A program made the translations under genes and the position numbers. From assembly GCA_017745235.1 (NCBI GenBank), contig JAGHZU010000005.1, forward strand, positions 186,001 through 250,000: a stretch of 64,000 bases of DNA, in the 5' to 3' direction. The notes below the pieces were generated by a model that worked only from the letters and a program-made list of their open reading frames with translations, was not told where the DNA came from and did not search any database. Positions 1-39,904 of this stretch are shown here, in pieces (position 1 is the first letter of the stretch; each line of letters starts with the position of its first letter). The stretch comes from Caulobacter sp. GTDB taxonomy: Bacteria; Pseudomonadota; Alphaproteobacteria; Caulobacterales; Caulobacteraceae.

Positions 1-1622
1 GCCTCGTCGCCGACGCCGACCTGGCGAGCGAGGAGGCCGCGCGCGTGCTCGCCGGCCTTGTCGAGAAGTCCCTGGTCCATGCCGAGCACGTCGACGGCGT
101 CACCGAGTATCGGCTCCTGGAGACGGCCCGCGTCTATGCCCTGGGCCGGCTCAAAGACAGCGGCGAGCTGCGCGCGCTCGCCCGGGGCCATGCCGAATGC
201 ATGCTCGGCTTCTTTGACCGGGCGGGGCCGGAGCTTCGGGCTCGCCCCCCTGCCCCCTTCGTCGCCACCCTGGGCCGCCAGATCGGCAATCTGCGCGTCG
301 CGCTGGACTGGGCGTTCTCGGCCGAGGGCGACCGGGATCTCTCAGTCCGGCTGGTGCTGGCCGCCCTGCCCGTTTGGCAGAGCCTGTCGTTGAGCCAGGA
401 GGCCCGAGGACGGATTGAGGCGACCTTGGCCATCCCAGGCGTGGCAAGTCAGCGTCGCCAGGCCGTGGAACTTCATCTCAATCTCGGCGGCGCGATCCTG
501 CAGACGACCGGCTGGGAGCCGCGCCTTGCAGTCACCTATGCCGAGGCGCTGCGTCTGGCTGAAGCACTGGGCGACAACGACTACACCCTGCGGGCGCTCT
601 GGGGCCTGATGATCACCCACTTCACGGGCCGCAACTTCCGCGCAGCCCTGGAAGCGGCCCAGCGGTTCCGCGCCCTGGCCAACCGGCTGGGTGATGTCGG
701 CGACACGATGGTGGGCGCGCGGATGATGGGCAACATCCACCACGTGCTAGGCGAACACGCCCAGGGTCTGCGCGAAATCGAGCTGATGCTGGATCTCTAT
801 GTCGAGAACCACCAGCGCTCCAACGCCAGCCGGTTTCAGTTCGATCAGCGCGTTGCGGCCTTGGCGTTCCACGCCGCGATCCTGTTCGTGCGCGGCCGCT
901 TCGACAAAGCTATGGCCTCGGCCCAGACAGCGGTCGACGAAGCCCTGGCGCTCAACCACATCCCCACCCTGTTCTACGGCCTCGGCTTCGGAGCCACCTT
1001 CGTGCCCCTGCATCTGGGCGCGGCCGAGGAAGCCGAGCGCTACCTCAGGCTCTATCTCGACTACACCGCCTCGCAGATCGGCTGGAGCTCGTGGGCCCAG
1101 GCCTATGATGGCGCCTGGCTGATCGAGACCGGGCGGGCCGCCGAGGGCGTGCCGCGCTTGCGCGAAGCCATCAACGCCCTCGGCGCTCGCGCTCTGCACA
1201 TGCACTACGCCGGCTTCCTGGCGGTGTTGGGGAGCGGCTACGAAGCGGTCGGCCACGGCGACAGCGCGCTCTGGACCCTTCAGAAGGCTCAGGACGAGGC
1301 CGAACTCCACCAGGAGCGCTGGATCCTGCCCGAGATCCTCCGGCGCAAGGCGGGCCTGACCCAGGTGCCGCCAGCCGAAGCCGAACGGCTGCTGATCCAA
1401 GCCCACGCCATGGCTCGCGCCGACGAAGCCCTGGGCTGGGAACTGCGGTGCGCCGTAGATCTTGCCGGCCTCATGCAGGGCCAGGGCCGTCTAGGCGAAG
1501 CGCACGCGGTGCTCGCGCCGACCTATGGCGCGTTGACGGAGGGGTTTGAGACCCGCGACGCCCTGGCGGCGCGAGGTCTCCTGCAGTCCCTGACCGAGGC
1601 TCTGGAGAACGTTGCGCGTTGA
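1..1622 (+). CDS. C-terminal part of a winged-helix/ATPase (STAND-like) transcriptional regulator, cut by the window start
   Basis: The frame is open from the first bases, so the start codon and N-terminus lie outside the window. About 540 residues are visible. They resemble the C-terminal half of the complete regulator at 6488-9316: a segment rich in LVEKS and YRLLETARVYA residues that follows the ATPase core, a DWAF segment, and then a long alpha-helical TPR-like region. By analogy the missing part should carry an OmpR-type winged helix and a P-loop ATPase. Such proteins are known as single-polypeptide regulators in which the helical repeats sense a partner or ligand. The stop codon is embedded in a TTGCGC-type dyad. 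Regulator class is secure by paralogy; target and signal are unknown. Confidence 0.75.
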   Translation, partial: LVADADLASEEAARVLAGLVEKSLVHAEHVDGVTEYRLLETARVYALGRLKDSGELRALARGHAECMLGFFDRAGPELRARPPAPFVATLGRQIGNLRVALDWAFSAEGDRDLSVRLVLAALPVWQSLSLSQEARGRIEATLAIPGVASQRRQAVELHLNLGGAILQTTGWEPRLAVTYAEALRLAEALGDNDYTLRALWGLMITHFTGRNFRAALEAAQRFRALANRLGDVGDTMVGARMMGNIHHVLGEHAQGLREIELMLDLYVENHQRSNASRFQFDQRVAALAFHAAILFVRGRFDKAMASAQTAVDEALALNHIPTLFYGLGFGATFVPLHLGAAEEAERYLRLYLDYTASQIGWSSWAQAYDGAWLIETGRAAEGVPRLREAINALGARALHMHYAGFLAVLGSGYEAVGHGDSALWTLQKAQDEAELHQERWILPEILRRKAGLTQVPPAEAERLLIQAHAMARADEALGWELRCAVDLAGLMQGQGRLGEAHAVLAPTYGALTEGFETRDALAARGLLQSLTEALENVAR

Positions 1623-1626
1623 GCAA
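1612..1626. promoter_or_regulatory. TTGCGC-type dyad, one mismatch, overlapping a stop codon
   Basis: The sequence reads TTGCGC GTT GAGCAA, one base off a perfect dyad. It overlaps the stop of the upstream regulator gene. Its centre is 32 bp from the centre of the perfect copy at 1644-1658, close to three helical turns. Confidence 0.5.
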
Positions 1627-1641
1627 CGCTTAGACGGTCAG

Positions 1642-1660
1642 TGTTGCGCTTAGCGCAACA
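1642..1660. promoter_or_regulatory. Perfect TTGCGC-N3-GCGCAA dyad, 8-bp arms
   Basis: TGTTGCGC TTA GCGCAACA is a perfect 19-bp dyad with a 3-bp centre. The same 15-bp core recurs ahead of many genes in the left 40 kb. It has no T-run after it, so an operator is more likely than a terminator. It could serve the nitronate monooxygenase at 1908. Confidence 0.6.
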
Positions 1661-1844
1661 ACTTTAGCGCGCAGCGCATCTTAGAGCCCCGCGCGCACCG
1701 GGTTACATCACACCTCAAGCGGAGCAGCTTCCCAGAGGTAAGTCTTGACGACCGATCCGATCCCGACCGCCGCGCCCTTTGCGCAGCGGCCGCGCCGATG
1801 GGCGGCCTTCGCCATTCCGAAGCCCTCATCGCGGTCGCCAATCT

Positions 1845-1859
1845 TTGCGCCAAACGCAA
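1845..1859. promoter_or_regulatory. TTGCGC-type dyad, one mismatch, upstream of nitronate monooxygenase
   Basis: TTGCGC CAA ACGCAA differs from the consensus dyad by one base. It ends 48 bp before the ATG at 1908, within the expected promoter region. Confidence 0.5.
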
Positions 1860-1907
1860 CGCGCCCGCGGATGACAAGAACGCCCAGCACGGCGAGTGAG
1901 TAAGCGT

Positions 1908-2996
1908 ATGACCCCCTGGCCCGATCAACGCCTGACGTCCCTCTTCGGCATCGAACATCCAATCCTCCAGGCCCCCCTTGCTGAGGTTGGCGGTCCACGG
2001 CTGGCCGCTGCGGTCAGCCAGGCCGGCGGGCTGGGCGCCCTGGCTTGCGCCACGCTTTCGCTGTCCAAGGCCGAGGCCGACATTGCCGCCTACCGCGCGG
2101 CCACCGACCGTCCGCTAAACCTCAACTTCTTCTGTCATCCCAACACCCCCGTCGGCGCGGACCTTCTTGCCGCCTGGCGCGCGCAGCTTGCGCCCTACTA
2201 TCGCGAACTGGCCGCCGCCGAACCGCGCGACACACCTTCGGTGACCTGGACGTCATTCAACGACGAGCACCTGGGCTTGATCCTGGCGGCGCGGCCCGAG
2301 GTCGTCAGCTTCCACTTGGGACTACCCGACGGACGACTGCTGTCGCGGGTCAAGGCCACCGGCGCCAAGGTCATCTGCTCGGCCACGACGGCCGCCGAAG
2401 CGCGCTGGCTCGAGGATCATGGCTGCGACGCGGTGATCGCGATGGGGTTCGAAGCCGGCGGACACCGCGGCAGCTTCCTGTGCAATGACGAGGACACCAT
2501 CATCGCCGGCAGCCAGGTCGGCGGCCTGGCCTTGATCCCACAGGTCGTCGACGCGGTGAGCCTGCCAGTCATCGCTGCGGGCGGCATCGCCGACGGACGT
2601 GGGGTGGTCGCGGCCCTGGCTCTGGGTGCGGCCGCGGTTCAGGTAGGAACCGCCTATCTCCTCTCACCGGAAGCCGACGTGCCTCCCTATCATCGCGCCG
2701 CCTTGGCCAGGGCCCGCGAAGACAGCACCATCCTGACCAACGTCTTCACAGGGCGCGCCGCGCGCGGCGTCGTCAATCGTCTCGTGCGCGAAGAAGGTCC
2801 GCTGTCGCCGGTGGCGCCACCGTTCCCCCATGCCCATACGGCGCTGGAGCCGCTGAAGGCCGCCGCGCCGGCGGAGTTCAGCCATGTCTGGGCCGGTCAG
2901 GCCGCCGCCTTGGTGCGTCCTGCCCCGGCGGGCGAGTTCACCCGCGCCTTGGCCGCTGACGCCCTGAGCCGGCTTGAGCGCTGGCCGCGTCCCTAG
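1908..2996 (+). CDS. Nitronate monooxygenase family protein (NMO/2-nitropropane dioxygenase)
   Basis: A 362-residue protein of the FMN-dependent TIM-barrel family that oxidises alkyl nitronates such as propionate-3-nitronate. The N-terminal QAPLA segment (residues 21-25), the AGGHRG motif (about 183-188, with the conserved His186) and the late AVQVGTAYL phosphate-binding segment fit the family. I prefer the ATG at 1908 over the GTG at 1896 because it aligns with the start of the paralogue at 31707. The gene is convergent with the AraC gene downstream and the two stops share a CTAG. TTGCGC-type dyads lie upstream at 1642 and 1845. Family is confident; substrate is not. Confidence 0.85.
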   Translation: MTPWPDQRLTSLFGIEHPILQAPLAEVGGPRLAAAVSQAGGLGALACATLSLSKAEADIAAYRAATDRPLNLNFFCHPNTPVGADLLAAWRAQLAPYYRELAAAEPRDTPSVTWTSFNDEHLGLILAARPEVVSFHLGLPDGRLLSRVKATGAKVICSATTAAEARWLEDHGCDAVIAMGFEAGGHRGSFLCNDEDTIIAGSQVGGLALIPQVVDAVSLPVIAAGGIADGRGVVAALALGAAAVQVGTAYLLSPEADVPPYHRAALARAREDSTILTNVFTGRAARGVVNRLVREEGPLSPVAPPFPHAHTALEPLKAAAPAEFSHVWAGQAAALVRPAPAGEFTRALAADALSRLERWPRP

Positions 2997-4050: not shown

Positions 4051-5055
4051 CTAGACGCCAAAGGCCGTGGCGGCGAACCGGTGTGAAACAGGCAGCTTCA
4101 CGCGCTGGGCTGGCGCCTCCAGGACCGGCAGGACAGGCGCATCGAAATAGCGCGCCCCCGCTGACCAGCGTCGAATCTGCTGCTCCAGAAGCGAAAGCGC
4201 CAGGATCGGCGCACTGGGAAGCTGGCGCCCCAAACGGGTAACCAGCGACACGCCGTGGGCCTGCGGGTCGACATCATTGAGCCGGACGGCGACAAGGTCA
4301 CCGCGCTCGACATCGCTGCGGGCGGCAATTTCCGGCAGGATCGCAACGCCACGGCCCTGCAGGGCCGACTTGCGCATCGCATCCACCGAATTGCTGGTGA
4401 CCACCGAGGTCAGGGTCACGTCGCATTGCTTTTCCGCCGCGCGCAAAGCCGCGCGCAGCCGCGAGCCCTTCATCGGCAAACACAGCTGATGGCTGCTCAG
4501 TTCACACAAGCCCACACTCGTCCGCTCGGCCAGGGGGTGGTCCGGCCGGCACAGGGCCACGAAACCCTGGGGCGCGGTGGCGCGCACCCGAACCTTCGGG
4601 TCCTCGGGAATCCCTACACCCACCCCGATGTGGGCCTCATCGTCCAACATCAGACCCACCAGGGCGTCGTTGGAGACATCGCTGACGACGATTTCCACCC
4701 CGGGGTGACCCTTGCGAAAGGCATCCAGCAACGGGTCGAATGCTTCGATCGACACCCCCTCGCCCACCGCCAGCTCCACCGTTCCGGTTTTCAGCTCGCG
4801 CAACGCGTCCAGGCGCGCGACGAAACTCTCCTGCTCGGCCAACCGAGACTGATAGTAGTCGAAGGTGATCTGTCCGGCCGGCGTCAGTTTGACGCTGCGT
4901 CGGCCGGTCTCGAGCAGGGTCATGCCCAAGGCCTGCTCGAGTTGGGCGATCTGTCGGCTGATCGAAGAGACCGCGACGTTCATTTGCAGACTGGCCGCGC
5001 GCATCGAACCATGCACGGCGGTGGCGTAGAAATATCTCAGCGCGATGTCGCTCAT
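4051..5055 (-). CDS. LysR-family transcriptional regulator
   Basis: A 334-residue LysR-type regulator. The N-terminal winged helix-turn-helix (residues about 1-62) is recognisable in the LRYFYATAVHGSMRAAS and SSISRQIAQLEQALG segments, followed by a periplasmic-binding-like effector domain. The C-terminus runs about 30 residues beyond the usual length of about 300. It is divergent from the AraC gene at 5330, and the 274-bp space between them holds an 8-bp inverted repeat. Effector unknown. Confidence 0.88.
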   Translation of the reverse strand: MSDIALRYFYATAVHGSMRAASLQMNVAVSSISRQIAQLEQALGMTLLETGRRSVKLTPAGQITFDYYQSRLAEQESFVARLDALRELKTGTVELAVGEGVSIEAFDPLLDAFRKGHPGVEIVVSDVSNDALVGLMLDDEAHIGVGVGIPEDPKVRVRATAPQGFVALCRPDHPLAERTSVGLCELSSHQLCLPMKGSRLRAALRAAEKQCDVTLTSVVTSNSVDAMRKSALQGRGVAILPEIAARSDVERGDLVAVRLNDVDPQAHGVSLVTRLGRQLPSAPILALSLLEQQIRRWSAGARYFDAPVLPVLEAPAQRVKLPVSHRFAATAFGV

Positions 5056-6487: not shown

Positions 6488-9316
6488 ATGAGCGCGCGCG
6501 CGCCTGCCTACGATCAAGTCGCAGAGCAAGAGCCCGTAATGGCGTTCGGGCCCTATCGGCTCTACATCGAACGACGGATGCTCGCCGAGGGCGACAAGCC
6601 CGTTCGCTTAGGCAGTCGGGGCCTTGCGATCCTCAACATCCTGCTGGAACGCCCGGGCGAACTCGTCACGCACGCCGAGCTCTTCGAGCGGGTCTGGGAC
6701 GGCGCAGTCATCGACGAAAGCGCGCTGCGCGTTCACATCGCTGCGCTGCGCAAGACCTTGGGCGATGGGCAGTCCGGGGCCCGCTATATCGTCAACGAGG
6801 TCGGACGAGGCTATCGGTTTGTTGCGCCGGTCACCGTCCTGGATCGTGGATACGGTCCGCCGGTGGCCACGCCGATCGGTCCTGCGGTGCTGCCCGCCCC
6901 GCTCAAGCGAATGCTCGGTCGCGGCGCACTGACCGAAACCCTGGCCGAGCGCCTCGAATCCGAACGTCTGCTGACGCTCGTGGGCCCAGGGGGTATGGGC
7001 AAGACGACACTTGCCTTGGCTCTGGCTGAACGCCAGACCGAGGTGCGTCGAGACGGGGCCCGCTTCGTCGACCTGGCCGGGATCACCGATCCCGTCCACG
7101 TTCCTGCAGCGATCGCCCGCGTGGTCGGCGTTTCGGTTGGTTCTGCCGATGTCGTCACCAGCCTCGTCAGCCACCTGCTGGATCGCGACGTCCTGATCGT
7201 CCTGGACAACTGCGAGCACGTCATCGAGGCGGCCGCGGCGACCGCCGAAGCGCTGATTTCCAAGACCCGCGACCTGCGCATTCTCGCCACCAGTCGCGAG
7301 CCGCTCCGCGCCGAGGGCGAACGTGTCCACCGGGTTAGTGGTCTGGAAACGGCACCGACCGGTTTGACGATCTCCGCGTTCGAAGCGCTGAGCTATCCGG
7401 CGATCGAGCTTTTCGTCGAACGCGCCAAGGCGCTTGTCGACGATTTCGAACTGCACGACGCCGAGGCCCAGGCGGTCGCGCGCATCTGCCATCAACTCGA
7501 CGGGGTGCCCCTGGCCATCGAACTGGCCGCCTCGCGGATCGACCAGCTTGGCCTCAGGGGGCTGCTCAGTGAGCTGGACGAGCAGTTCATCACCCTCAAC
7601 CAAGGCCGGCGCACCGCCCTGCCCCGGCACCAAACCGTCGGGGCTTTGATCGACTGGAGCTACGATCTCCTCGACGAGGCTGAGCGATTGGTTTTTCGAC
7701 GCCTATCGGTGTTTCGCGGCGCGTTCACGCTCGACGCGGCCCGGGCTGTCTGCGCCGACGACGCCATCGACGAGACAGCCGTGTTGGCCTGCTTGTACGC
7801 CTTGTCGGCCAAATCCTTGGCGGTCCATGACGCCAGCGGCGAGACGGTGCTTTATCGCTTGCCGCACCTGACCCGGGTCTATGCGCAACTGAAGCTGCGC
7901 GGCAGCAACGAGGATGGCGAAATCCGCCGCCGACATGCTCGGTATCTTCTCGCCTTCCTAGACCGCGCGGATGAAGCCTGGACTGTTGAGCGGAAGCTGG
8001 AGTGGCTTGAAACCTTCGGCGGGACGATCGACGACGTGCGCGCCGCGCTGGACTGGGCATTCGCCACGCCTGGAGAAGCAGGCTTGGCCACGGCGCTCAC
8101 AGCCGCAGCGCTCCCAATTGGCCTCCAACTGACCCTGCTCGAGGAGTTTCGCGCCTATGTCGAGCGGGCGTTGAAGTTGCTCGTCGAGGAAGCCCCGGAC
8201 TATCGTCTCGAAATGCGTCTGACCGTCGCCATGGGCAATCTCAACGGCCAGATGCGCGGCACGACGCCCGAGACCGCTGCAGCCTTCGCGCGCACGCTCG
8301 AACTCTCCGATCAGTTGGGCATGACGTCCTATCAGATCGAAGCGCTGATGGGCATGTGGGTGTGGGCGTTCGGGCTTGGCGACTATCCGGCCTCGGCGAC
8401 CTTCGCAGAACGCCTGGGTCTGGCGGCCAGCGGGGCGTCCAATCCAGACGCCAGCCTGCTGGCCCAGCGCAAGATGTCGCAATCGCGCCACTTCATGGGC
8501 GACCATGGCCGGGCACGCCAGTTGGCCGAGCGCGTGCTGACTTATCCCAGCCGGACCCTGCGGCTGGGTTACAACACACCCTTCCAGATTGACCGACGCG
8601 CCTCTATGCGCATCGTCCTGGCTCGCATGGACTGGCTGGAAGGCAAGATCGATCGCGCGGTGTCGATCGTCGACGAGGCGATCGCCATCGCCGAAGACGA
8701 TACGCCGTTCACCCTGTGTCAGGTCCTGGCCCTGGCGGCGATCCCGATTGCGTTTTGGCGCGGCGAGGACGACCGCGTCGCCCCCCTGGTCAAGCGTCTC
8801 ATCGAGCACGCCTGGCGCTACTCCAGTCCCCATTGGGCCCACTGGGGAGAAAACTTCGACCGCATCCTGGCCGCCCGGCGGATGCGCGACAGCGGCGTGC
8901 GCCCGCTCGTCAGCGACATCGTGGTCCAAGGCGCCAAGCAGCTCGATATGCACGCCACCCTAATGGAGCAACTGGCTGTCCCGATGGCGGCCGCTCGCGC
9001 CGAAAGCCCGAACCCCGGCTGGTCGGGACCGGAGGTCTTGCGCGCGATCGGAGAAAATCGTCTGCGCCAAGGCGGTCCCGAAGCGCGCGCCGAGGCCGAG
9101 GCGCGGTTTGCCCGCGCGGCCATGCTGGCTGAACGGCAGGGCGCGCTGTCCTGGAGCTTGCGCATCGCGATGAGCCAGGCCCGCATGAAGCTGGAAGCGG
9201 GGCTGCGGGAGGAAGCCGAACACCTGCTGGCCCCCGTGCTCGAGCGCTTCACCGAGGGGCGCGGCACACGCGACCTGAGGGCGGCCGTGCGCCTCTTGGG
9301 TGAGATCCAGAGCTAG
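6488..9316 (+). CDS. Winged-helix/P-loop ATPase transcriptional regulator with TPR-like C-terminus
   Basis: A 942-residue protein. Residues about 18-115 are an OmpR/PhoB-type winged helix (ending in the VGRGYRFVAPV wing). Residues 166-174 are a Walker A motif (GPGGMGKTT) and 236-240 a Walker B (LIVLD) followed by NCEHV, typical of STAND/NB-ARC-like regulators. The last about 400 residues are helical and TPR-like. It is the full-length paralogue of the truncated gene at the left edge. The 243-bp gap upstream holds its promoter region. As in the paralogue, a TTGCGC-type dyad follows the stop codon closely. Signal and target unknown. Confidence 0.85.
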   Translation: MSARAPAYDQVAEQEPVMAFGPYRLYIERRMLAEGDKPVRLGSRGLAILNILLERPGELVTHAELFERVWDGAVIDESALRVHIAALRKTLGDGQSGARYIVNEVGRGYRFVAPVTVLDRGYGPPVATPIGPAVLPAPLKRMLGRGALTETLAERLESERLLTLVGPGGMGKTTLALALAERQTEVRRDGARFVDLAGITDPVHVPAAIARVVGVSVGSADVVTSLVSHLLDRDVLIVLDNCEHVIEAAAATAEALISKTRDLRILATSREPLRAEGERVHRVSGLETAPTGLTISAFEALSYPAIELFVERAKALVDDFELHDAEAQAVARICHQLDGVPLAIELAASRIDQLGLRGLLSELDEQFITLNQGRRTALPRHQTVGALIDWSYDLLDEAERLVFRRLSVFRGAFTLDAARAVCADDAIDETAVLACLYALSAKSLAVHDASGETVLYRLPHLTRVYAQLKLRGSNEDGEIRRRHARYLLAFLDRADEAWTVERKLEWLETFGGTIDDVRAALDWAFATPGEAGLATALTAAALPIGLQLTLLEEFRAYVERALKLLVEEAPDYRLEMRLTVAMGNLNGQMRGTTPETAAAFARTLELSDQLGMTSYQIEALMGMWVWAFGLGDYPASATFAERLGLAASGASNPDASLLAQRKMSQSRHFMGDHGRARQLAERVLTYPSRTLRLGYNTPFQIDRRASMRIVLARMDWLEGKIDRAVSIVDEAIAIAEDDTPFTLCQVLALAAIPIAFWRGEDDRVAPLVKRLIEHAWRYSSPHWAHWGENFDRILAARRMRDSGVRPLVSDIVVQGAKQLDMHATLMEQLAVPMAAARAESPNPGWSGPEVLRAIGENRLRQGGPEARAEAEARFARAAMLAERQGALSWSLRIAMSQARMKLEAGLREEAEHLLAPVLERFTEGRGTRDLRAAVRLLGEIQS

Positions 9317-9325
9317 AGATCTGTG

Positions 9326-9340
9326 TTGCGCTTGGCGCAT
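9326..9340. promoter_or_regulatory. TTGCGC-type dyad, one mismatch, upstream of amidohydrolase
   Basis: TTGCGC TTG GCGCAT, one base from the perfect dyad, in the 146-bp gap before the amidohydrolase at 9463. Confidence 0.5.
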
Positions 9341-9462
9341 CAACCCCATCCTGTCGGCGCCCTCCCCAGGCCTGTAAGCCTTGGTCGCGCGCGGCCCCCT
9401 GCGCGTGGCGCCGCCTTTGGGAAACTGAATGGCGGCCCGTTCCCGCGTAAAGGCCGCTCGCG

Positions 9463-11319
9463 ATGACCGCTCCCGACCTCATCCTCACCAACGCCCGGTT
9501 CACGACCCTCGATCGCGCCAATCCCGCACCCGAGGCGGTCGCCATCACGGACGGACATTTCTCGGCCGTCGGGGATGAAGGCGACATTCTGGCGACCCGT
9601 GGCCCGGCCACCCAGGTCCTCGACCTGAAGGGTCGCCGCGTGATCCCCGGCCTGATCGACAGCCACATGCACATCATCCGCGGCGGCCTGAACTACAACA
9701 TGGAGCTGCGCTGGGACGGCGTGCCGACCCTGGCCGACGCCATGGCCATGCTGAAGAAGCAGGCCGCCAACACCCCGCCGCCCCAGTGGGTGCGCGTGGT
9801 CGGCGGCTTCACCGAGCACCAGTTCGTCGAGAAGCGCCTGCCGACCCTGGACGAAATCAACGCCGCCGCGCCCGACACGCCGGTGTTCATCCTGCACCTC
9901 TACGATCGGGCGCTGCTCAACCGCGCCGCCCTGCGCGCCGCCGGCTACACCAAGGACACGCCCAACCCGCCGGGTGGCGAGATCCAGCGCGACGCTTCCG
10001 GCGAGCCGACCGGCCTGCTGCTGGCCCAGCCGAACGCCACGATCCTGTACGCCACCCTGGCCAAGGGGCCCAAGCTGCCGCCCGAGTACCAGCTGAACTC
10101 GACCCGCCACTTCATGCGCGAGATGAACCGCCTGGGCGTGACCGGCGTGATCGACGCCGGCGGCGGTTTCCAGAACTATCCCGACGACTACGAGATCATC
10201 GAGAAGCTGCACGCCGACGACCAGCTGACCCTGCGCATCAGCTACAACCTCTTCACCCAGAAGCCGAAGGCCGAGCTGTCGGACTTCCAGTCGTGGTCCA
10301 AGCAGGTGAAGCCCGGTCAGGGCGACGACAAGTACCGCCACAACGGCGCGGGCGAGATGCTGGTCTACAGCGCCGCCGACTTCGAGGACTTCCGCGTCGA
10401 GCGTCCCGAGATGCCGGCCAACATGGAGACCGACCTGGAGCCGGTGATCCGTCACCTGGCCGAGCAGCGCTGGCCCTGGCGGCTGCACGCAACCTATGAC
10501 GAGACGATCACCAGGGCGCTGGACGTCTACGAGAAGGTCAACAAGGACGTCCCGTTCGACGGGCTGCACTGGTTCTTCGACCACGCCGAGACCATCAGCG
10601 AGCGCAACATCGACCGCATCGCGGCCCTGGGCGGCGGCATCGCCGTGCAGCACCGCATGGCCTATCAGGGCGAGTACTTCATCGAGCGCTATGGGGCCAA
10701 GGCCGCCGAGCGCACGCCGCCGATCGACAAGATGCTGAAGGCCGGCATCCCGGTGGGCGCGGGCACCGACGCCACCCGCGTGGCCAGCTACAATCCCTGG
10801 GTCTCGCTGAACTGGCTGGTGACGGGCAAGACCGTCGGCGGTACGCGCCTCTATCCGCCGACCAACCGCCTGGACCGCGAGGAGGCCCTGCGCCTGTGGA
10901 CCACGGCCAACACCTGGTTCTCCAACGAGGAAGGCAAGAAGGGCCAGATCGCCGTGGGGCAGCTGGCCGACCTGGCGGTGCTTTCCGATGACTACATGCG
11001 CGTGCCCGAGGACGAGATCCCGCACCTGGGCTCGGTGCTGACCCTGCTGGGCGGCAAGGTGGTGCATGGCGAGGGCGACTATTCCACACTGGCCCCCGAC
11101 CTGCCCCCGCCCATGCCCGACTGGTCGCCGGTGCGCACCTTCGGCGGCTACCAGGACCGTTCGAGAAAGACCGCCATGGCCCTGGCCTCGGCCTGCGGCT
11201 GCGCCAGCAGCTGCAATGTCCACGGCCACGACCACGCCGCGGCCTATACGCGAGAGGCCCCGGCCGCCGACGCGCGCTCGTTCTGGGGCGCGATGGGCTG
11301 CGGCTGCTGGGCGGTCTGA
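9463..11319 (+). CDS. Amidohydrolase family protein (YtcJ-like) with Cys/His-rich C-terminal tail
   Basis: A 618-residue metal-dependent amidohydrolase. The DSHMH metal motif (H68, H70) follows a beta-sandwich N-terminus, and later segments (HATYDETI, HWFFDHAE, GAGTDATRVASYNPW) match the amidohydrolase-3 subgroup. No signal peptide is visible. The last about 42 residues are unusual: C578, C580, C584, H587, H589, H591, C613 and C615 form a potential metal-binding tail. Base composition is markedly GC-biased at third positions. Substrate cannot be named. A TTGCGC-type dyad lies upstream. Confidence 0.85.
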   Translation: MTAPDLILTNARFTTLDRANPAPEAVAITDGHFSAVGDEGDILATRGPATQVLDLKGRRVIPGLIDSHMHIIRGGLNYNMELRWDGVPTLADAMAMLKKQAANTPPPQWVRVVGGFTEHQFVEKRLPTLDEINAAAPDTPVFILHLYDRALLNRAALRAAGYTKDTPNPPGGEIQRDASGEPTGLLLAQPNATILYATLAKGPKLPPEYQLNSTRHFMREMNRLGVTGVIDAGGGFQNYPDDYEIIEKLHADDQLTLRISYNLFTQKPKAELSDFQSWSKQVKPGQGDDKYRHNGAGEMLVYSAADFEDFRVERPEMPANMETDLEPVIRHLAEQRWPWRLHATYDETITRALDVYEKVNKDVPFDGLHWFFDHAETISERNIDRIAALGGGIAVQHRMAYQGEYFIERYGAKAAERTPPIDKMLKAGIPVGAGTDATRVASYNPWVSLNWLVTGKTVGGTRLYPPTNRLDREEALRLWTTANTWFSNEEGKKGQIAVGQLADLAVLSDDYMRVPEDEIPHLGSVLTLLGGKVVHGEGDYSTLAPDLPPPMPDWSPVRTFGGYQDRSRKTAMALASACGCASSCNVHGHDHAAAYTREAPAADARSFWGAMGCGCWAV

Positions 11320-26298: not shown

Positions 26299-26335
26299 GT
26301 CTGGAGCCAGCCTTCGCCAAGCCGGCGCGCCAGCG

Positions 26336-26350
26336 TTGCCGCCGCCGCAA
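26336..26350. promoter_or_regulatory. Degenerate TTGC-N7-GCAA dyad upstream of aldehyde dehydrogenase
   Basis: TTGCCG CCG CCGCAA keeps the outer TTGC/GCAA of the 15-bp dyad at the same spacing. It lies 107 bp before the GTG start at 26457. The inner bases differ, so this may be chance. Confidence 0.3.
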
Positions 26351-26456
26351 CAAACCGCGCGGCGGTCGTGATTGAGACCCCGAGCCGATCCGAAGACAGT
26401 CCGCGCACCCGTCCGAGCCGCCCTCCCCAAGGCTGCCTCTCCCCTCGGAGCTCCCA

Positions 26457-27932
26457 GTGACCCAATCTGTTTCCACGCCCTACGACTTCACGACCCTGGC
26501 CATCGCCGGCCAATGGCGCTCCGGCTCGGCCGGCACCGTCATGAACGTCCTTGATCCCTATTCCGGCGAGACGGTGACAAGCTTCGGCGAGGCCGGCCTG
26601 GCGGACATCGACGCGGCCTATCAAGGCGCCGCGGCGGCCCAGCGCGACTGGGCCGCCGCCCTGCCGGTCCAGCGCGCCAACGTCTTTCGGCGAGCGGGCG
26701 AGGTCATGCAGGCCCGCCACGACGAGATTATCGACTGGCTGATCCGCGAAGCCGGCTCCACCCGCATCAAGGCCGAGATCGAGTTCGGCGCGGTGCTGGC
26801 CAGCATGCTGGAAGCCTCCACCCTGCCCTCGCGCCTGGAAGGTCGGATTCTCGGCGGCGATTATCCGTTCAAGGAAAACCGCATCTATCGCGGTCCGGTC
26901 GGGGTGGTGTCGGTGATCAGTCCCTGGAACTGGCCCATGCATCTGTCCGTGCGCTCGATCGTCCCCGCCCTGGCCCTGGGCAACGGCGTGGTGGTCAAGC
27001 CTGCTGGCGAAACGCCGATCACCGGCGGTCTGCTGATCGCGCGCATCCTGGAAGAGGCCGGCCTGCCGCCGGGCCTGCTCGCCGTCGTCTCCGGGCCGGT
27101 CGCCGTCATCGGCGACTACTTCGTCCAACACCCGGCCTCCCGCGTCATCTCGTTCACCGGCTCGACCAAGGTTGGCCAGCACATCGGCGCCCTGGCCGTC
27201 ACCGGCCCGACGCTGAAGAAGGCGCTGCTGGAACTGGGCGGCAACGGCCCGTTCGTCGTGCTCGACGACGCCGACCTCGACCGCGCCGTCCAGGCCGCGG
27301 CCCTGTCGAAGTTCCTGCACCAGGGCCAGATGTGCATCGCCGCCAACCGGATCATCGTCATGGACGCCGTCCACGACGCCTTCGTCGAGCGCTTCACCGC
27401 CTATGCCGCCGGCCTGAAGGTCGGAGACCCCAAGCTCCCCGACACGGTCATCGGGCCCATCATCACCAAAAAGCAGCTGACCAGCATCGAGGGCATGGTC
27501 GCCACGGCCCGGCAGGAAGGCGCGCGTCAGCGCCTGGGGGCCCCGGCCCAGGGACTGGTGCTGCCGCCGCACATCTTCGACCAGGTCACCCCGGAGATGG
27601 CCATCGGCCGCCACGAGATCTTCGGTCCGGTGGCGCCGATTTACCGGGCCCGCGACGAGGCCCACGCCCTGGAACTGGCCAATGACACCGAGTACGGCCT
27701 GACCAGCGCGGTCTTCTCGGGCAGCATCGAGCGCGGCGCTCAGTTCGCCAAGGGCGTCAAGGCGGGCATGACCCACGTCAACGACGTGACCGCCATCGAC
27801 ATGCCGGGCCTGCCGTTCGGCGGCGAGAAGAACTCCGGCCTGGGCCGCTTCGGCGCGGCCGGGGTCATCGAGGCCTTCACCACCGAGCACTGGATCTCGA
27901 TCCAGCACGCTGCCTATCCCTACCCGTTCTAG
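26457..27932 (+). CDS. Aldehyde dehydrogenase family protein
   Basis: A 491-residue NAD(P)-dependent aldehyde dehydrogenase starting at GTG. N158 (SPWNWP), K181 (KPAGETP), E259 (LLELGGN) and the catalytic C293 (GQMC) are present. It resembles benzaldehyde/salicylaldehyde-type ALDHs, though the exact substrate cannot be read from the sequence. It starts a new unit after a strong terminator; OmpW follows 9 bp after its stop and is probably cotranscribed. Confidence 0.92.
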   Translation: MTQSVSTPYDFTTLAIAGQWRSGSAGTVMNVLDPYSGETVTSFGEAGLADIDAAYQGAAAAQRDWAAALPVQRANVFRRAGEVMQARHDEIIDWLIREAGSTRIKAEIEFGAVLASMLEASTLPSRLEGRILGGDYPFKENRIYRGPVGVVSVISPWNWPMHLSVRSIVPALALGNGVVVKPAGETPITGGLLIARILEEAGLPPGLLAVVSGPVAVIGDYFVQHPASRVISFTGSTKVGQHIGALAVTGPTLKKALLELGGNGPFVVLDDADLDRAVQAAALSKFLHQGQMCIAANRIIVMDAVHDAFVERFTAYAAGLKVGDPKLPDTVIGPIITKKQLTSIEGMVATARQEGARQRLGAPAQGLVLPPHIFDQVTPEMAIGRHEIFGPVAPIYRARDEAHALELANDTEYGLTSAVFSGSIERGAQFAKGVKAGMTHVNDVTAIDMPGLPFGGEKNSGLGRFGAAGVIEAFTTEHWISIQHAAYPYPF

Positions 27933-30293: not shown

Positions 30294-30722
30294 ATGAAAA
30301 TCGTCAGAACAGGCTCGGCCGGCTGGGAAGGCGGCGTCAAGGACGGCAAGGGCACGATCAGCACCGAGAGCGGCGCCCTGAGCGACTACCCCTACGGCTT
30401 CGCCAGCCGCTTCGAGGGCCAGCCCGGCTCCAATCCCGAAGAACTCATCGGCGCGGCCCACGCCGCCTGCTTTCAGATGGCCCTGACGCTGGGCCTGCAG
30501 CAGGCCGGCCTGCGGGCCGACCGTCTGGACACCTCGGCCAAGGTCACCCTCGAGCAAGTCGAAGGCGGCTACGCCATCACCGCCTCGCACCTGACCCTCA
30601 AGGCCCAGATCCCGGGCGCGGACCAGGCCACGTTCGAGGCGGTGACCGCCGCGGCCAAGGCCGGCTGCCCCGTCTCCAAACTGCTCAAGGCCGACGTCTC
30701 GCTCGACGCCGAGCTGATCTAG
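30294..30722 (+). CDS. osmC: OsmC-type organic hydroperoxide reductase
   Basis: A 142-residue OsmC/Ohr-superfamily protein of the OsmC branch. The redox cysteines C59 (AAHAACF) and C125 (AAKAGCPVSKLL) and the NPEELIGAAH motif are present. It reduces organic peroxides. An AAGGAG site precedes the ATG at 30294. Its stop overlaps that of the convergent LysR gene (shared CTAG). Confidence 0.92.
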   Translation: MKIVRTGSAGWEGGVKDGKGTISTESGALSDYPYGFASRFEGQPGSNPEELIGAAHAACFQMALTLGLQQAGLRADRLDTSAKVTLEQVEGGYAITASHLTLKAQIPGADQATFEAVTAAAKAGCPVSKLLKADVSLDAELI

Positions 30723-31612
30723 GCCGCCGCGGCGCCGGCTCGGGCCCGAAGGTTCGAGCTGGCCGCCAAGGCGCCGCGCAGCGCGTCGAGCAACGGCGAG
30801 CGGTACTCCGACCGGCTGATCAGAACCGTCTCGATGCGTTGCAACGGCGTGGTTCGCACGGGCGGCGGCGTCGCCGCCAGCTCCAGCAGCGCGCGCGGCA
30901 CGACCGCCGCGGCTGCGCCGGCCGCCACACAGGCGATGATCGCATGATAGGACCCCAGCTCCAGGACCCGCATCGGACGCTCGGCGCGTCCACCCGCCAG
31001 CCAGGCCTCGCCGATCCTGCGGTAGGCGCACCCAAATTCGAAGGCGGCGAAGGCCCCCACCCGCACGTCGCTCGCCGACAGGGCCGCCGGATGATCTCGC
31101 GGCAGGATGAGCATCAGGTCCTCGGCCCAGATCGGCTCGGCCGTGACGCCGGAGCCTGCCAGAGATCCTGGCGCGGCCGCGACCAGGCCCACATCCAGGC
31201 GATGGTCCAGCACCTGGTCGATGATGGCCTGGGTGGTCCCCGTCGTCAGTTGCAGATCCACATGAGGATAGTCGGCATGGAACTTGGCCAAAGGTTCTGG
31301 AAGCCGCGCGGCGGCGGTGCTCTCCATCGCCCCCAGCCGAAGACGTCCGGCGCTCACCTCGCCCACGACAGCGCCCCGGGCTTCGGCGGCCACAGACAGA
31401 AGGTGGTTGGCATAGCCCAGGAAGACCTCGCCTTCGGCGGTCAGCAGCATGCGCTTTCCATCCCGCCGGAAGAGGTCACGGCCAAGCTCGGCTTCCAGGT
31501 CCCGCAGGCGCGTGGAGATGTTGGACTGGGCCCGACCAAGGCGCCCGGCCGCGCGGGTCACGCCGCCCTCGGAAGCGACGGCCGCGAAGATCTCCAAGGT
31601 CGAAAAGTCCAT
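30719..31612 (-). CDS. LysR-family transcriptional regulator
   Basis: A 297-residue regulator from the ATG at 31612 (a second ATG nine bases upstream is also possible). The MDFSTLEIFAAVASEGG winged helix start and the RLGRAQSNISTRLRDLE recognition helix are clear; the effector domain follows. It is divergent from the nitronate monooxygenase at 31707, whose promoter region carries two dyads fitting a LysR operator, so it probably controls that gene. Confidence 0.9.
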   Translation of the reverse strand: MDFSTLEIFAAVASEGGVTRAAGRLGRAQSNISTRLRDLEAELGRDLFRRDGKRMLLTAEGEVFLGYANHLLSVAAEARGAVVGEVSAGRLRLGAMESTAAARLPEPLAKFHADYPHVDLQLTTGTTQAIIDQVLDHRLDVGLVAAAPGSLAGSGVTAEPIWAEDLMLILPRDHPAALSASDVRVGAFAAFEFGCAYRRIGEAWLAGGRAERPMRVLELGSYHAIIACVAAGAAAAVVPRALLELAATPPPVRTTPLQRIETVLISRSEYRSPLLDALRGALAASSNLRARAGAAAA

Positions 31613-31644
31613 GGCGCGCATCCATCTTCAAACGAGATTGAATG

Positions 31645-32810: not shown

Positions 32811-32818
32811 CGTCACTG

Positions 32819-32833
32819 TTTCGCATAGCGTAA
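32819..32833. promoter_or_regulatory. TTTCGC ATA GCGTAA dyad upstream of LysR gene
   Basis: A variant of the TTGCGC-N3-GCGCAA dyad with one internal mismatch between arms. It lies 46 bp before the GTG of the LysR gene at 32880; a further TTGCGCAA octamer is at 32860-32867. This is the arrangement expected for autoregulation. Confidence 0.5.
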
Positions 32834-32879
32834 CGATAACCACCAAACCAAGCTCGACGTTGCGCAAGGAGTCGGACCT

Positions 32880-33821
32880 GTGGATCGCATCGACGCCATG
32901 CGCGTGTTCGTCTCTGTCCTGGAGGAAGGCAGCCTGGCCGCAGCAGCGCGACGGTTTGGCCGCTCGCCCGCCGCAGTTTCCCGGACCATCGCCTATCTGG
33001 AACAACATGTCGGCGCACAGCTGCTGCATCGCACGACAAGATCGCTGAAGCTGAGCGAGGTTGGCGAACGCTACGCTGCTGCCTGTCGGCGGATCCTCAG
33101 CGATCTTGAGGAAGCCGACATGATGGCGGCGGGCGAGCGGGCCGCGCCGCGCGGCGTCCTGACCGTGACTGCGCCGCTGGTCGCCGGCTCCCAGATCATC
33201 CGTCCGCTGCTCGACGCCTTTCTCGACACCCAGCCCAATGTCCGCGCACGCCTGCTGCTGCTGGACCGGCCGGTGAACCTCATCGACGAGGGCGTGGACG
33301 TGGCGCTGCGCATCGCCCACCTGCCCGACTCCAGCCTGGTGGCGATCCGCGTCGGGGAGGTGCGCCGCGTAGTCTGCGCCGCGCCCAGCTATCTCGACAA
33401 TCGTCCACCGATCCGCACGCCGCACGACCTGCGCGACCAGGTCATCGTCAACATGCCCCAGTTCGGCATCGACGCCTGGGTCTTCCCGCCGGCCGAGGAC
33501 AGCCCCGGCCTGCGAACCATCCCGATCGCCCCGCGCCTGGCCGTCAACACCATTGAGAGCGCCGTGGCCTCGGCCGTCACCGGCCAAGGCGTCACGCGCG
33601 TCTTCTCCTACCAGGTGGCCGACCACGTGGCCGCCGGCCGCCTGCGCATCATCCTGGCCGACGCCGAGCCCACGCCCCTGCCCGTCCACGTCATCACCCC
33701 CGAGGGGCGGCTGTCGGCGCCGAAGGTCCGGGCCTTTGTCGACTTCGTCGTCCCACGCCTGAAGGCCGAGTTCGCCCGGCGGGCCGAGGCCGCGCGCATG
33801 CCCGCGGAGACCCTCGCATGA
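32880..33821 (+). CDS. LysR-family transcriptional regulator (CrgA-like)
   Basis: A 313-residue regulator starting at GTG behind an AAGGAG site. The N-terminus MDRIDAMRVFVSVLEEGSLAAAARRFGRSPAAVSR-type helix pattern and the effector-domain segment RIAHLPDSSLVAIRVGEVRRVVCAAPSYL place it in the CrgA/aldehyde-responsive branch of LysR proteins. A TTGCGC-type dyad lies just upstream, so it is the best candidate for the regulator of the dispersed dyads in this window. Its stop overlaps the start of the HEPN-motif gene (ATGA). Confidence 0.9.
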   Translation: MDRIDAMRVFVSVLEEGSLAAAARRFGRSPAAVSRTIAYLEQHVGAQLLHRTTRSLKLSEVGERYAAACRRILSDLEEADMMAAGERAAPRGVLTVTAPLVAGSQIIRPLLDAFLDTQPNVRARLLLLDRPVNLIDEGVDVALRIAHLPDSSLVAIRVGEVRRVVCAAPSYLDNRPPIRTPHDLRDQVIVNMPQFGIDAWVFPPAEDSPGLRTIPIAPRLAVNTIESAVASAVTGQGVTRVFSYQVADHVAAGRLRIILADAEPTPLPVHVITPEGRLSAPKVRAFVDFVVPRLKAEFARRAEAARMPAETLA

Positions 33822-35939: not shown

Positions 35940-36091
35940 CGGTCATCTCCAAGGAAGGTTTGACCGGGCCTGAACTTGGCTTGGCCCGGGTGACACCTCG
36001 ACCGTAGCGATAGCCCCGACCCGCTCAATGACGGCCGCCGCCAGGCTTGTTGCGCGCACCACAACCCTGGGAACCTTGGTCGCCCGGCCGT

Positions 36092-38374: not shown

Positions 38375-38475
38375 GCTATCCCCCGGAAAACCTTAGATCG
38401 CCGCGCCTGGCGGACGGCGGAACAGTGGTCGAAGGCCAAGCCCTGACCGAGTGAAGTCCTGTGAAGAGGCGGGTA

Positions 38476-39819
38476 TCAGGCCACGCTCCGGCGCTCGCGA
38501 CCTGGCGGCGCGCAGTTGAGGAGCAGGATCGTCGAGGCGATCGCGACGACCATGACGCCCGTGACGGCCGTCGGCCCTTTCGCGTGCAGGATCGGCAGCA
38601 GCACGAACGGGGCCAGGCAGGATCCCAGCCGGTTGGCCGCCCAGCCAAACGCGGCCATGCGGGCGCGCTGGTCGGTCGGATAGAGCTCGCCCGTATAGGT
38701 GAAGAGCACCGGCACCAGCACTGTGCCCAGGACGTTGAACAGCACCCCGGCGCAGAGCAGCAGCCGCGGCCCGGTCGCCGCCACGAATAGAATGCCGGCC
38801 ACCCCAATCAGCACGCTGAGGGCCGCCAGGACACGCCGCCGCGCGCCCAGGTCCAGAACCGGCGCGGTGATGAAGCCGCCCAGCATCGGACCAACCGACA
38901 GCAGGCCGACATAGAGCAGCGTCTTCTCCACGCCAAAGCCCTTCTGGACCAGGATCGCCGCGCTCATGATTGGGAAAGAGCCATTGACCCAGGGGCTGAG
39001 CGCCCAAATCCCCATCAGCACGGCCGTCGCCACCGCCGTGGGTTTACGGCCGGCGGCCTGCTCGGATCGGATCAGGGAGCGCCGGCCGACAAGGGGGACC
39101 GGAGGCGACGCCTCGAAACGGGCGAAGAGCGCCTCGGCCTTGGCCCGCTCGCCGCGCGCGAAAAGCCAGCGGGGCGTTTCGGGGAGCAGCAGGAAGAAGA
39201 GCCCCAGCACGATGGCGCCGCCGCCGCCCAACATGAAACCCCATCGCCAACCTTCGATCCCCAAGGGTTGCAAGCTGTCCATCCAGCGGGTCATGAAAAG
39301 CGCTGCCGGCGCGCCCAGCGAGGCCAGAGACGTCGACCCGACCAGCAACCCTGCCCTGCGATCCGGCGGCACGATCTCAGCCAGGTAAGCCATCAGGATC
39401 GGTGGGAATGCGCCCAAGGCTAGACCTGAGAGCATCCGGAAAGCGATCAGCCAGGACAGGTCCTCACGTACCGGCGCCAGGGCCGTACAGACGCCCATCC
39501 ACACCAGGCTCGCCATCATGGTGCGCCGCCGGCCCCAGCGGTCAGCCACCCAGCCCAGGACGGGCGATCCAACCATCCCGCCGAAGAACACCGAGGTCAC
39601 CACCATCGGCAGCGCCAGGCTGTGATTGATCCGGGCGTTGCTGCTCAGGAACGTCGACAGCACGCTGTTGAGCGCGATTTCCCAAAGGTCGAACGACAGG
39701 GCCGTCGCGGCCAGGACCAGAACCCCGACATGCGCCCAGGACAGCGGTAGAGCATCATAGCGCGCCGCGAACGCAGACACTTCGTCTGGCGTCGGCGTCG
39801 CGCGCGGTTGGGGAGCCAT
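38476..39819 (-). CDS. MFS transporter (metabolite:H+ symporter type)
   Basis: A 447-residue transporter with twelve hydrophobic segments. Motif A between helices 2 and 3 reads GWVADRWGRRRT, and the AEIVPPDRRAG loop is typical of the sugar porter/AAHS (aromatic acid) groups. It lies in the inner membrane. A perfect TTGCGC dyad is 71 bp upstream of its start, placing it in the suspected regulon. It precedes the TonB receptor on the same strand. Confidence 0.9.
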   Translation of the reverse strand: MAPQPRATPTPDEVSAFAARYDALPLSWAHVGVLVLAATALSFDLWEIALNSVLSTFLSSNARINHSLALPMVVTSVFFGGMVGSPVLGWVADRWGRRRTMMASLVWMGVCTALAPVREDLSWLIAFRMLSGLALGAFPPILMAYLAEIVPPDRRAGLLVGSTSLASLGAPAALFMTRWMDSLQPLGIEGWRWGFMLGGGGAIVLGLFFLLLPETPRWLFARGERAKAEALFARFEASPPVPLVGRRSLIRSEQAAGRKPTAVATAVLMGIWALSPWVNGSFPIMSAAILVQKGFGVEKTLLYVGLLSVGPMLGGFITAPVLDLGARRRVLAALSVLIGVAGILFVAATGPRLLLCAGVLFNVLGTVLVPVLFTYTGELYPTDQRARMAAFGWAANRLGSCLAPFVLLPILHAKGPTAVTGVMVVAIASTILLLNCAPPGRERRSVA

Positions 39820-39889
39820 GTTCGATCCAGGACGCGGGACTTTGACGCCCTGTCGGCCATGGGGGTGTTGCGGAGCCAGCGGCTTGTCG

Positions 39890-39904
39890 TTGCGCTACGC
39901 GCAA
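39890..39904. promoter_or_regulatory. Perfect TTGCGC-N3-GCGCAA dyad upstream of MFS transporter
   Basis: TTGCGC TAC GCGCAA is perfect and is extended by one G/C pair to 17 bp. It lies between the divergent MFS gene (start 39819) and the nuclease-like gene (start 40050). Confidence 0.6.

What the first reader, a model, noticed from the sequence alone, without database searches (positions are those of the whole stretch)
1612..39904. A dispersed 15-bp dyad, TTGCGC-N3-GCGCAA, marks a probable local regulon
Perfect copies occur at 1644, 15681 and 39890; one-mismatch copies at 1612, 1845, 9326, 24018 and (variant arms) 32819; weaker ones at 21231, 21264, 26336 and 15729. All lie in intergenic DNA or at a stop codon, upstream of nitronate monooxygenase, amidohydrolase, the isochorismatase operon, AhpD-like/catalase, alpha/beta hydrolase, aldehyde dehydrogenase, LysR and MFS genes. 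None was noticed in the housekeeping part. The genes share a theme of peroxide or reactive-compound handling. Sites and positions are direct; a single regulator is inference.
Basis: partly seen in the sequence, partly recalled or inferred. Interest (0 to 1): 0.8.

Follow-up and report, generated by a model that had tools for sequence, protein, structure and literature searches.

The report
Private operator of a 42-kb gene cluster
A short mirror-image DNA sign (GTTG, nine free bases, CAAC) is packed into one 42-kb stretch of this bacterium's genome, mostly ahead of genes, so it is very probably the landing site of one gene regulator, still unidentified, that governs a cluster of enzymes and stress-defence genes.

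Summary
All quoted coordinates check out. TTGCGC-N3-GCGCAA occurs perfectly 4 times in the 4.93-Mb genome, 3 of them in the window. The constant part is looser and wider: GTTG-N9-CAAC, 20 places in the genome, 11 of them in 42.2 kb that begin 2.3 kb left of the window and end at 39905. Among all 4-base dyads at 21 spacings it ranks first there (P=1.2e-11). With gene starts set by me 10 of 11 are intergenic; an uncorrected caller puts 8 of 11 in ORFs, but none in a Pfam domain, against 4 of 9 outside. Ten of 19 site-gene pairs are 103-136 bp apart. New targets: ADH/linalool-dehydratase-like, Dps, SLAC1, AraC, an envelope-like protein.

GTT-N11-AAC equals the footprinted operator of the LysR-type activators PnpR/PnpM, so a LysR-type regulator is likeliest; the LysR gene at 32880, with a weak site of its own, leads without proof. 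An IclR site (TphR) also carries the 15-bp dyad, and two STAND regulators sit in the cluster. No sampled relative has such a cluster of sites; two target genes tested are nearly absent from the family. The regulator is the open question.

The parts
1611..1627 (.). GTTG-N9-CAAC site GTTGCGCGTTGAGCAAC, overlaps the stop codon of STAND gene R1; first of a tandem pair 32 bp apart
1643..1659 (.). perfect 17-bp dyad GTTGCGCTTAGCGCAAC, about 260 bp upstream of nitronate monooxygenase
1844..1860 (.). weaker copy TTTGCGCCAAACGCAAC, about 57 bp before the monooxygenase ATG (1908)
9325..9341 (.). one-mismatch dyad GTTGCGCTTGGCGCATC, 130 bp before amidohydrolase
14370..14386 (.). GTTGTGGTCGCAACAAC, between SLAC1 stop and the AraC start that I set at 14305 (73 bp upstream)
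15680..15696 (.). perfect dyad GTTGCGCCAAGCGCAAC between divergent small ORF/SLAC1 (119 bp) and isochorismatase operon (166 bp)
15728..15744 (.). GTTGTCGCCAGCGCAAC, 118 bp before isochorismatase ATG (15854)
20626..20642 (.). GTTGCGCGCGCGACAAC, 106 bp before Dps/ferritin-like gene (ATG taken at 20528, minus strand)
21230..21246 (.). two-mismatch dyad GTTGCGCCCCGTGCATC, 136 bp before AhpD-like gene (ATG 21374)
21263..21279 (.). two-mismatch dyad GGTGCGGCGGGCGCAAC, 103 bp before AhpD-like gene; 33 bp from the previous one
24017..24033 (.). weak site ATTACGCTGGGCGCAAT, 118 bp before alpha/beta hydrolase; doubtful
26335..26351 (.). GTTGCCGCCGCCGCAAC, 114 bp before aldehyde dehydrogenase
32818..32834 (.). 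two-mismatch dyad GTTTCGCATAGCGTAAC, 54 bp before LysR gene at 32880 (possible autoregulation)
36049..36065 (.). GTTGCGCGCACCACAAC, 118 bp before an envelope-protein-like gene (35445-35939, minus; weak EipA match, E 0.0011)
39889..39905 (.). perfect dyad GTTGCGCTACGCGCAAC between divergent MFS (78 bp) and the 39993 gene pair; right end of the cluster
1..1622 (+). 3' part of STAND regulator R1 (winged helix + AAA/NB-ARC-like; starts at C123:184740)
1896..2996 (+). nitronate monooxygenase (ORF as called; likely ATG 1908)
4051..5055 (-). LysR-type regulator; no exact site in its promoter
6488..9316 (+). STAND regulator R2 (Trans_reg_C + NB-ARC)
9463..11319 (+). amidohydrolase (Amidohydro_3), probable target
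13703..14500 (-). AraC-type regulator (as called; likely start 14305), probable target
14391..15398 (-). SLAC1-type anion channel, probable target
15854..16477 (+). YcaC-like isochorismatase-family hydrolase, followed by DUF1427/XapX, DoxX and DUF1275 genes
20001..20528 (-). Dps/ferritin-like protein, probable target
21374..21718 (+). AhpD-like (CMD) protein, followed by catalase (21737-23185)
26457..27932 (+). aldehyde dehydrogenase, followed by OmpW, MBL-fold, cupin and OsmC genes
30719..31621 (-). LysR-type regulator, divergent from a second nitronate monooxygenase; no exact site between them
32880..33821 (+). LysR-type regulator (nearest NCBIfam model YafC, below its cut-off), leading candidate for the regulator
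38476..39819 (-). MFS transporter, followed by a TonB-dependent receptor (36092-38374), probable target

Best explanation
GTTG-N9-CAAC is the operator of a cluster-specific transcription factor that controls about a dozen promoters of one acquired 42-kb gene cluster. Most likely the factor is a LysR-type activator: a dimer of its DNA-binding domains would sit on the 17-bp GTT-N11-AAC dyad (the high-affinity site), often 103-136 bp before the start codon and so perhaps 65 bp before the transcript start, and the tetramer would reach down to a weaker site near the -35 region; tandem dyads 32-33 bp apart at two promoters would hold both halves. The best candidate is the LysR gene at 32880, which has a weak site in its own promoter. 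Shown: the sites, their clustering and their spacing to genes. Inferred: binding, activation, the protein family (about 0.6 given that it is an operator), the gene (about 0.3), and acquisition of the cluster.
For: 11 of 20 GTTG-N9-CAAC sites of the genome in 42.2 kb; all 6 17-mers with at most one mismatch there. First of all 4-base dyads at spacings 0-20 in the 43.5 kb, P=1.2e-11; best dyads of the two flanks 7.8e-6 and 1.1e-4. None of 11 sites in a Pfam-matched domain, against 4 of 9 outside; with gene starts set by me 10 of 11 centres intergenic where 12.8% of the DNA is. 10 of 19 site-gene pairs 103-136 bp apart. The outer four base pairs are kept in all 11 sites (by definition of the pattern), the inner three paired, G-T included, in only 8, 5 and 6 of 11, as for a protein site and not a hairpin. 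GT[G/C]A[T/A]TGA 16 bases after the dyad in 4 of 16 oriented promoters: 0 of 500 in each of two nulls in the best of five settings. Same geometry as the footprinted PnpM/PnpR operator GTT-N11-AAC at -80 to -64 (abstract and passages of PMC5603801). Three LysR genes in the cluster, one with a site 54 bp upstream.
Against: No binding or expression data. An uncorrected ORF caller puts 8 of 11 cluster sites and 8 of 9 outside sites in ORFs, so the intergenic placing rests on my corrections. Of 15 loci of LysR 32880 relatives in 14 other family genomes (48-63% identical), none has an exact site within 1.5 kb; 5 have one-mismatch matches; the recognition helix is close in 9 of the 10 read in frame. 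Upstream DNA of two plasmid homologues has none. The other two LysR genes have no site in their promoters. AraC 14305 and R1 also have sites upstream, so a site before a regulator is not special to this LysR. An IclR regulator (TphR) has the same 15-bp dyad. ATTGA alone is not significant (201 and 308 of 2000), and two of five settings are not. 9 of 19 site-gene distances fall outside 103-136 bp (54 to 317). Transcript starts unknown.
Confidence: 0.48

Rival explanations
1. The operator belongs to a dimeric regulator of another family (IclR, MarR, TetR or GntR) encoded elsewhere in the genome, acting as repressor or activator.
For: The IclR regulator TphR binds TTTTTGCGCATAGCGCAAAAA, which contains exactly TTGCGC-N3-GCGCAA (one table row seen in PMC8222616). 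The genome has 4 IclR genes. Such families commonly bind 15-17-bp dyads (recalled).
Against: None of the 4 IclR genes lies in the cluster, the nearest is about 113 kb away, and their loci of about 3.4 kb hold no exact site, though one- and three-mismatch matches occur. The IclR group-1 consensus GKTYCRYW3-4RYGRAMC wants a pyrimidine where the exact sites have G, and IclR tandem sites are 18-22 apart against 32, 33 and 48 here. Clustering of the sites favours a regulator carried with them.
Confidence: 0.25
2. One or both STAND regulators (R1, R2: winged helix, NB-ARC-like ATPase, long C-terminal part) bind the dyad.
For: R1 and R2 lie among the sites. STAND-like regulators stand near the hydrolase-XapX-amidohydrolase module in 2 of the 4 annotated plasmid records fetched (Niveispirillum, Sphingobium) and beside comparable enzyme genes in Bradyrhizobium.
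Against: 14 neighbourhoods of STAND homologues from the order, three plasmid loci found with R2 and six module loci have no exact site; some have one-mismatch matches. R1 and R2 are only 38% identical with different recognition-helix sequences. Winged helices of this type usually bind direct repeats (recalled).
Confidence: 0.15
3. The dyads are not operators: chance in GC-rich DNA, RNA hairpins or copies of a small repeat element.
For: With two mismatches allowed in the window the excess is small (3 of 100 shuffles); with three mismatches to the 17-mer there is none genome-wide; by an uncorrected caller 8 of 11 sites are in ORFs; some sites share weak matches of 21-43 bp around them.
Against: Clustering in 0.9% of the genome and top rank in an unbiased scan; inner pairs not kept, so no conserved hairpin; matches between flanks centre on the site and do not run further.
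Confidence: 0.07

Closest known systems
PnpR/PnpM operators (LysR-type regulators of para-nitrophenol catabolism, Pseudomonas sp. WBC-3; PMC5603801, abstract and passages seen)
   Same: 17-bp dyad GTT-N11-AAC; one regulator serving several operons (PnpR: four, its own gene included); site upstream of the promoter (-80 to -64)
   Different: Inner bases differ (CGCGTTTCGCA against GCGCNNNGCGC); other genes; 4 promoters against about a dozen; binding shown there, not here
TphR operator (IclR family, Comamonas sp. E6; one table row of PMC8222616 seen)
   Same: Contains the identical 15-bp dyad TTGCGC-N3-GCGCAA
   Different: Flanked by T/A instead of G/C; here the inner GCGC is optional; no IclR gene in the cluster
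LysR box (T-N11-A) regulons in general
   Same: T-N11-A lies inside the dyad; position before the promoter would fit
   Different: Such regulons usually have one or two promoters next to the LysR gene (recalled); here 11 exact sites over 42 kb
Plasmid module hydrolase-XapX-amidohydrolase(-DoxX-YoaK), Azospirillum, Niveispirillum, Sphingobium
   Same: Same genes (amidohydrolase about 80% identical) and, in two of four annotated records, STAND-like regulators near
   Different: There the genes stand together in one run without the dyad; here they are split into units with dyads of their own

Membership tests
LysR-type (LTTR) operator/regulon | dyad containing T-N11-A | tested here: met
   GTTG-N9-CAAC = GTT-N11-AAC in 11 sites
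LysR-type (LTTR) operator/regulon | recognition site centred near -65 of the transcript start | tested here: inconclusive
   103-136 bp before the start codon in 10 of 19 pairs; possible -35-like element 16 bases after the dyad in 4 of 16 promoters; no transcript starts known
LysR-type (LTTR) operator/regulon | LysR gene linked to the sites | tested here: met
   three LysR genes inside the cluster
LysR-type (LTTR) operator/regulon | site in the promoter of the regulator gene | tested here: inconclusive
   two-mismatch site 54 bp before the 32880 LysR; none before the other two
LysR-type (LTTR) operator/regulon | site conserved with orthologues of the regulator | tested here: not met
   15 other loci of 14 family genomes without an exact site; tested for LysR 32880 only
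LysR-type (LTTR) operator/regulon | LysR protein binds the site | not testable with these tools
   needs gel shift or DAP-seq
IclR (TphR-like) operator | group-1 consensus GKTYCRYW3-4RYGRAMC | tested here: not met
   G instead of Y at position 4 of the exact sites; TphR's own site deviates there too
IclR (TphR-like) operator | tandem sites 18-22 bp apart | tested here: not met
   32, 33 and 48 bp
IclR (TphR-like) operator | IclR gene linked | tested here: not met
   4 IclR genes in the genome, none in the cluster
STAND (winged helix, NB-ARC) regulator operator | site conserved beside STAND homologues | tested here: not met
   no exact site in 14 homologue loci of the order and 3 plasmid loci found with R2

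The most novel reading that the evidence does not exclude
The dyad is read by a STAND-type (winged helix, NB-ARC ATPase) regulator of the cluster, which would give this large family of signal ATPases an operator and a multi-promoter regulon, and would show an accessory gene cluster whose separate units each gained the same operator after the genes were gathered.
Probability: 0.13. Interest if true: 0.65.

Novelty: new member of a known kind. Interest (0 to 1): 0.42.

Why it matters
A sharply defined operator, nearly exclusive to one accessory cluster, names the targets of an unstudied regulator before any experiment and ties genes of unclear purpose (XapX, DoxX, DUF1275, YcaC-like hydrolase, Ldi-like enzyme) into one response. 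It also raises a question of regulatory evolution: the sites share little outside the dyad, so about a dozen promoters appear to have gained the same operator one by one.

Tried and rejected
Tried without result: neighbourhoods of STAND homologues, LysR 32880 relatives, plasmid homologues of the isochorismatase, LysR, STAND and amidohydrolase genes (searches; loci 43-48, 70-75, 95-100 scanned): no exact site before the homologous genes; two exact sites elsewhere in them (L099 at 5423, L125 at 10204). Loci (relatives of LysR 30719) were listed, not scanned. MFS gene in plasmids: no match. Collection scan for the dyad plus GTSATTGA: 5 single hits in unrelated taxa, by my estimate about chance. 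Order and class samples for the 17-mer: scattered copies. Papers: 1 paper with at least 5 of LysR/STAND/winged helix/NB-ARC/TPR/regulon terms, a Streptomyces one, listing only; none with at least 4 of LysR/YcaC/isochorismatase/regulon/DoxX/OsmC; listings seen; a search for the 15-bp arms gave 28 papers, 25 listed, of which passages of three were seen: PhaR/AniA, another motif, the IclR review and a primer match only. Rejected: hairpin, repeat element, chance.

Set aside: 4432 (inside a gene) and 1665, 35098, 43148 (two mismatches, no GTTG-N9-CAAC) are not counted as sites; 24017 is kept as doubtful. One search used 16 of the 19 site-gene pairs (the first of each tandem pair left out on the plus strand). 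Gene starts of ADH, AraC 14305, isochorismatase, Dps and AhpD were moved by me to in-frame ATGs that fit the protein families; the intergenic count depends on this and the outside sites were not treated in the same way, which is why I added the Pfam comparison. The monooxygenase start used is one base off its ATG. After that check I lowered the best explanation from 0.50 to 0.48 and raised the chance rival from 0.05 to 0.07.
Full report
Observation. TTGCGC-N3-GCGCAA is at 1644, 15681 and 39890 without mismatch and at 1612, 1845, 4432, 9326 and 24018 with one. In the whole genome (4,928,801 bases, 167 contigs; the window is C123:186001-250000) the perfect form occurs 4 times, 3 in the window, control 0; with up to one mismatch 18 times, control 6, 9 of the 18 within C123:184416-225904. 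The weak end of the list is not safe: 15 sites with up to two mismatches in the window against 8.6 expected, reached by 3 of 100 shuffles.

Redefinition. The flanks of the good sites share one more base pair. The 17-mer GTTGCGC-N3-GCGCAAC with at most one mismatch has 6 places in the genome, all in C123:184415-225905; with exactly two mismatches 5 of 33 places are there; with up to three there is no excess over control. In 124 kb around the window GTTG-N9-CAAC occurs 11 times, all between C123:183696 and 225905, while the other spacings from 5 to 15 give 0 to 2 each. In the genome it occurs 20 times, the reversed control 25, and 11 of the 20 are in that 42.2-kb stretch. So it is not more frequent than chance in the genome as a whole; it is concentrated. 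Part of this is circular, since the motif was drawn from some of these sites. A scan that presumes nothing (all 4-base dyads, spacings 0-20) still puts GTTG/9 first in the 43.5 kb with P=1.2e-11, against 7.8e-6 and 1.1e-4 for the best dyads of the two flanks.

Placing. With gene starts set by me from the protein families, 10 of 11 centres are intergenic and one overlaps the stop codon of R1, in DNA of which 12.8% is intergenic. This is not a like-for-like comparison with the rest of the genome: the same uncorrected ORF caller puts 8 of 11 cluster sites and 8 of 9 outside sites inside ORFs. What differs is the kind of ORF. Outside, 4 of 9 sites lie inside a Pfam-matched domain (Omp85, ammonium transporter, glycosyltransferase, tryptophan halogenase). 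Inside, none of 11 does: four sites (187643, 201680, 201728, 212335) fall in short ORFs without a Pfam match, three (183696, 200370, 206626) fall ahead of the domain in ORFs extended at the front, whose front parts before the first and third have no match, one is at the very end of R1, three are outside ORFs. By hand, 0 of 11 against 4 of 9 has a one-sided exact probability of 0.026.

Distances: 132 bp before ADH, 130 before amidohydrolase, 118 and 166 before isochorismatase, 119 before a small ORF and SLAC1, 106 before Dps, 136 and 103 before the AhpD-like gene, 114 before aldehyde dehydrogenase, 118 before the envelope-protein-like gene, 118 (doubtful site) before the alpha/beta hydrolase, 78 before MFS, 153 before the gene right of it, 73 before AraC, 54 before LysR 32880, 317 before R1, and 290, 258 and 57 before the monooxygenase; 10 of these 19 are 103-136. 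Units without an exact site include LysR 4051, AraC 5216, R2, LysR 30719 with the second monooxygenase, and the HWE kinase.

What the site looks like. The inner three pairs are complementary in 8, 5 and 6 of 11 sites, so a protein reading the outer half-sites fits better than an RNA hairpin. Flanks of 200 bp share only matches of 21 to 43 bp around the site, among them 31 bp at 84% between the aldehyde dehydrogenase and envelope-like promoters, so a repeat element is unlikely. Tandem sites are 32, 33 and 48 bp apart. After the dyad, four promoters (aldehyde dehydrogenase, envelope-like gene, Dps, AhpD second site) have GTGATTGA or a one-base variant at the same 16-base distance. Of five settings tried, this one gave 0 of 500 in both nulls, two more gave 2 to 7 of 500, and two were not significant (40 to 107 of 500). 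ATTGA alone is not significant.

The cluster. From left: SCO1, linalool dehydratase/isomerase-like, ADH, STAND regulator R1, nitronate monooxygenase, AraC, LysR, AraC, STAND R2, amidohydrolase, an unnamed gene, alginate-export-type porin, AraC, SLAC1, isochorismatase, XapX (DUF1427), DoxX, DUF1275, an unnamed gene, Dps, AhpD-like, catalase, HD, alpha/beta hydrolase, SDR, tautomerase, aldehyde dehydrogenase, OmpW, MBL, cupin, OsmC, LysR, second monooxygenase, LysR, an unnamed gene, HWE kinase, TonB receptor, MFS. The isochorismatase is in none of 248 other family genomes at E 1e-70, the aldehyde dehydrogenase in 1 of 198 others at E 1e-150, while the amidohydrolase is about 80% identical to plasmid genes of Niveispirillum, Azospirillum and Sphingobium. 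There the same genes stand together as hydrolase, XapX, amidohydrolase, mostly DoxX, in two of four annotated records with STAND-like regulators near, without an exact dyad. I read this as gain of the cluster by transfer and a separate gain of the operator; both are inference.

Relatives. Perfect 17-mers: none in 36 same-genus genomes, one each in two other genomes of the order among 60 relatives; in 385 class genomes 16 have any, this one three, one other two. GTTGYSSN3SSRCAAC: 9 here, at most 3 in each of 298 other family genomes. The dyad plus GTSATTGA in genome contigs (84,980 species): 5 single hits in unrelated taxa (the window's own genome may be left out there).

Regulator. GTT-N11-AAC is the footprinted operator of the LysR-type activators PnpM and PnpR at -80 to -64, PnpR serving four operons (abstract and passages of PMC5603801). 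With T-N11-A inside the dyad and three LysR genes in the cluster, a LysR-type activator is the best guess. Of the three only LysR 32880 has a site in its promoter, a two-mismatch one whose score is not reached outside the cluster in 124 kb. Its relatives in 14 other family genomes lack an exact site (5 of 15 loci have one-mismatch matches) although 9 of 10 helices read in frame are close, which weakens it. TphR, an IclR protein, has the identical 15-bp dyad, but no IclR gene is in the cluster and the IclR consensus and tandem spacing do not fit. STAND proteins remain possible. No test of binding was possible.

Verdict. A real, sharply bounded operator of a known kind of regulation, private to this lineage as far as searched; the regulator is unidentified.

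Noticed in passing
L016:14928-17572 (C123:180928-183572), just left of the window: Linalool dehydratase/isomerase-like gene (PF18566, E 1.5e-107) next to a zinc ADH, with a SCO1/SenC gene beyond, and a GTTG-N9-CAAC site 132 bp before the ADH start: possible terpene-alcohol step in the regulon.
   Followed up: partly
window 6488-9316 and C123:184740-187622: Two STAND regulators (winged helix, NB-ARC-like ATPase) only 38% identical within 5 kb of each other; homologues are common on rhizobial plasmids (170 plasmid records).
   Followed up: partly
L145, L146, L147, L150 and window 9463-17973: Hydrolase-XapX(DUF1427)-amidohydrolase(-DoxX-YoaK/DUF1275) recurs on alphaproteobacterial plasmids; in the window it is broken into separate units.
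   Followed up: partly
window 31645-31656: Palindrome ACCATATATGGT between the divergent LysR (30719-31621) and second nitronate monooxygenase: perhaps that LysR's own operator, different from the dyad studied.
   Followed up: no
window 15423-15569 (minus): Small ORF of 48 residues ahead of the SLAC1 gene (translated), with the perfect 15680 dyad 119 bp upstream.
   Followed up: no
window 18709-19767: 352-residue ORF with unusually low third-position GC (0.62) and no Pfam or NCBIfam match, in the middle of the cluster: possible recent insertion.
   Followed up: no
window 39993-41275: Two genes of about 211 residues right of the last dyad, one with a faint PD-(D/E)XK match (E 0.019); no family match otherwise.
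   Followed up: no
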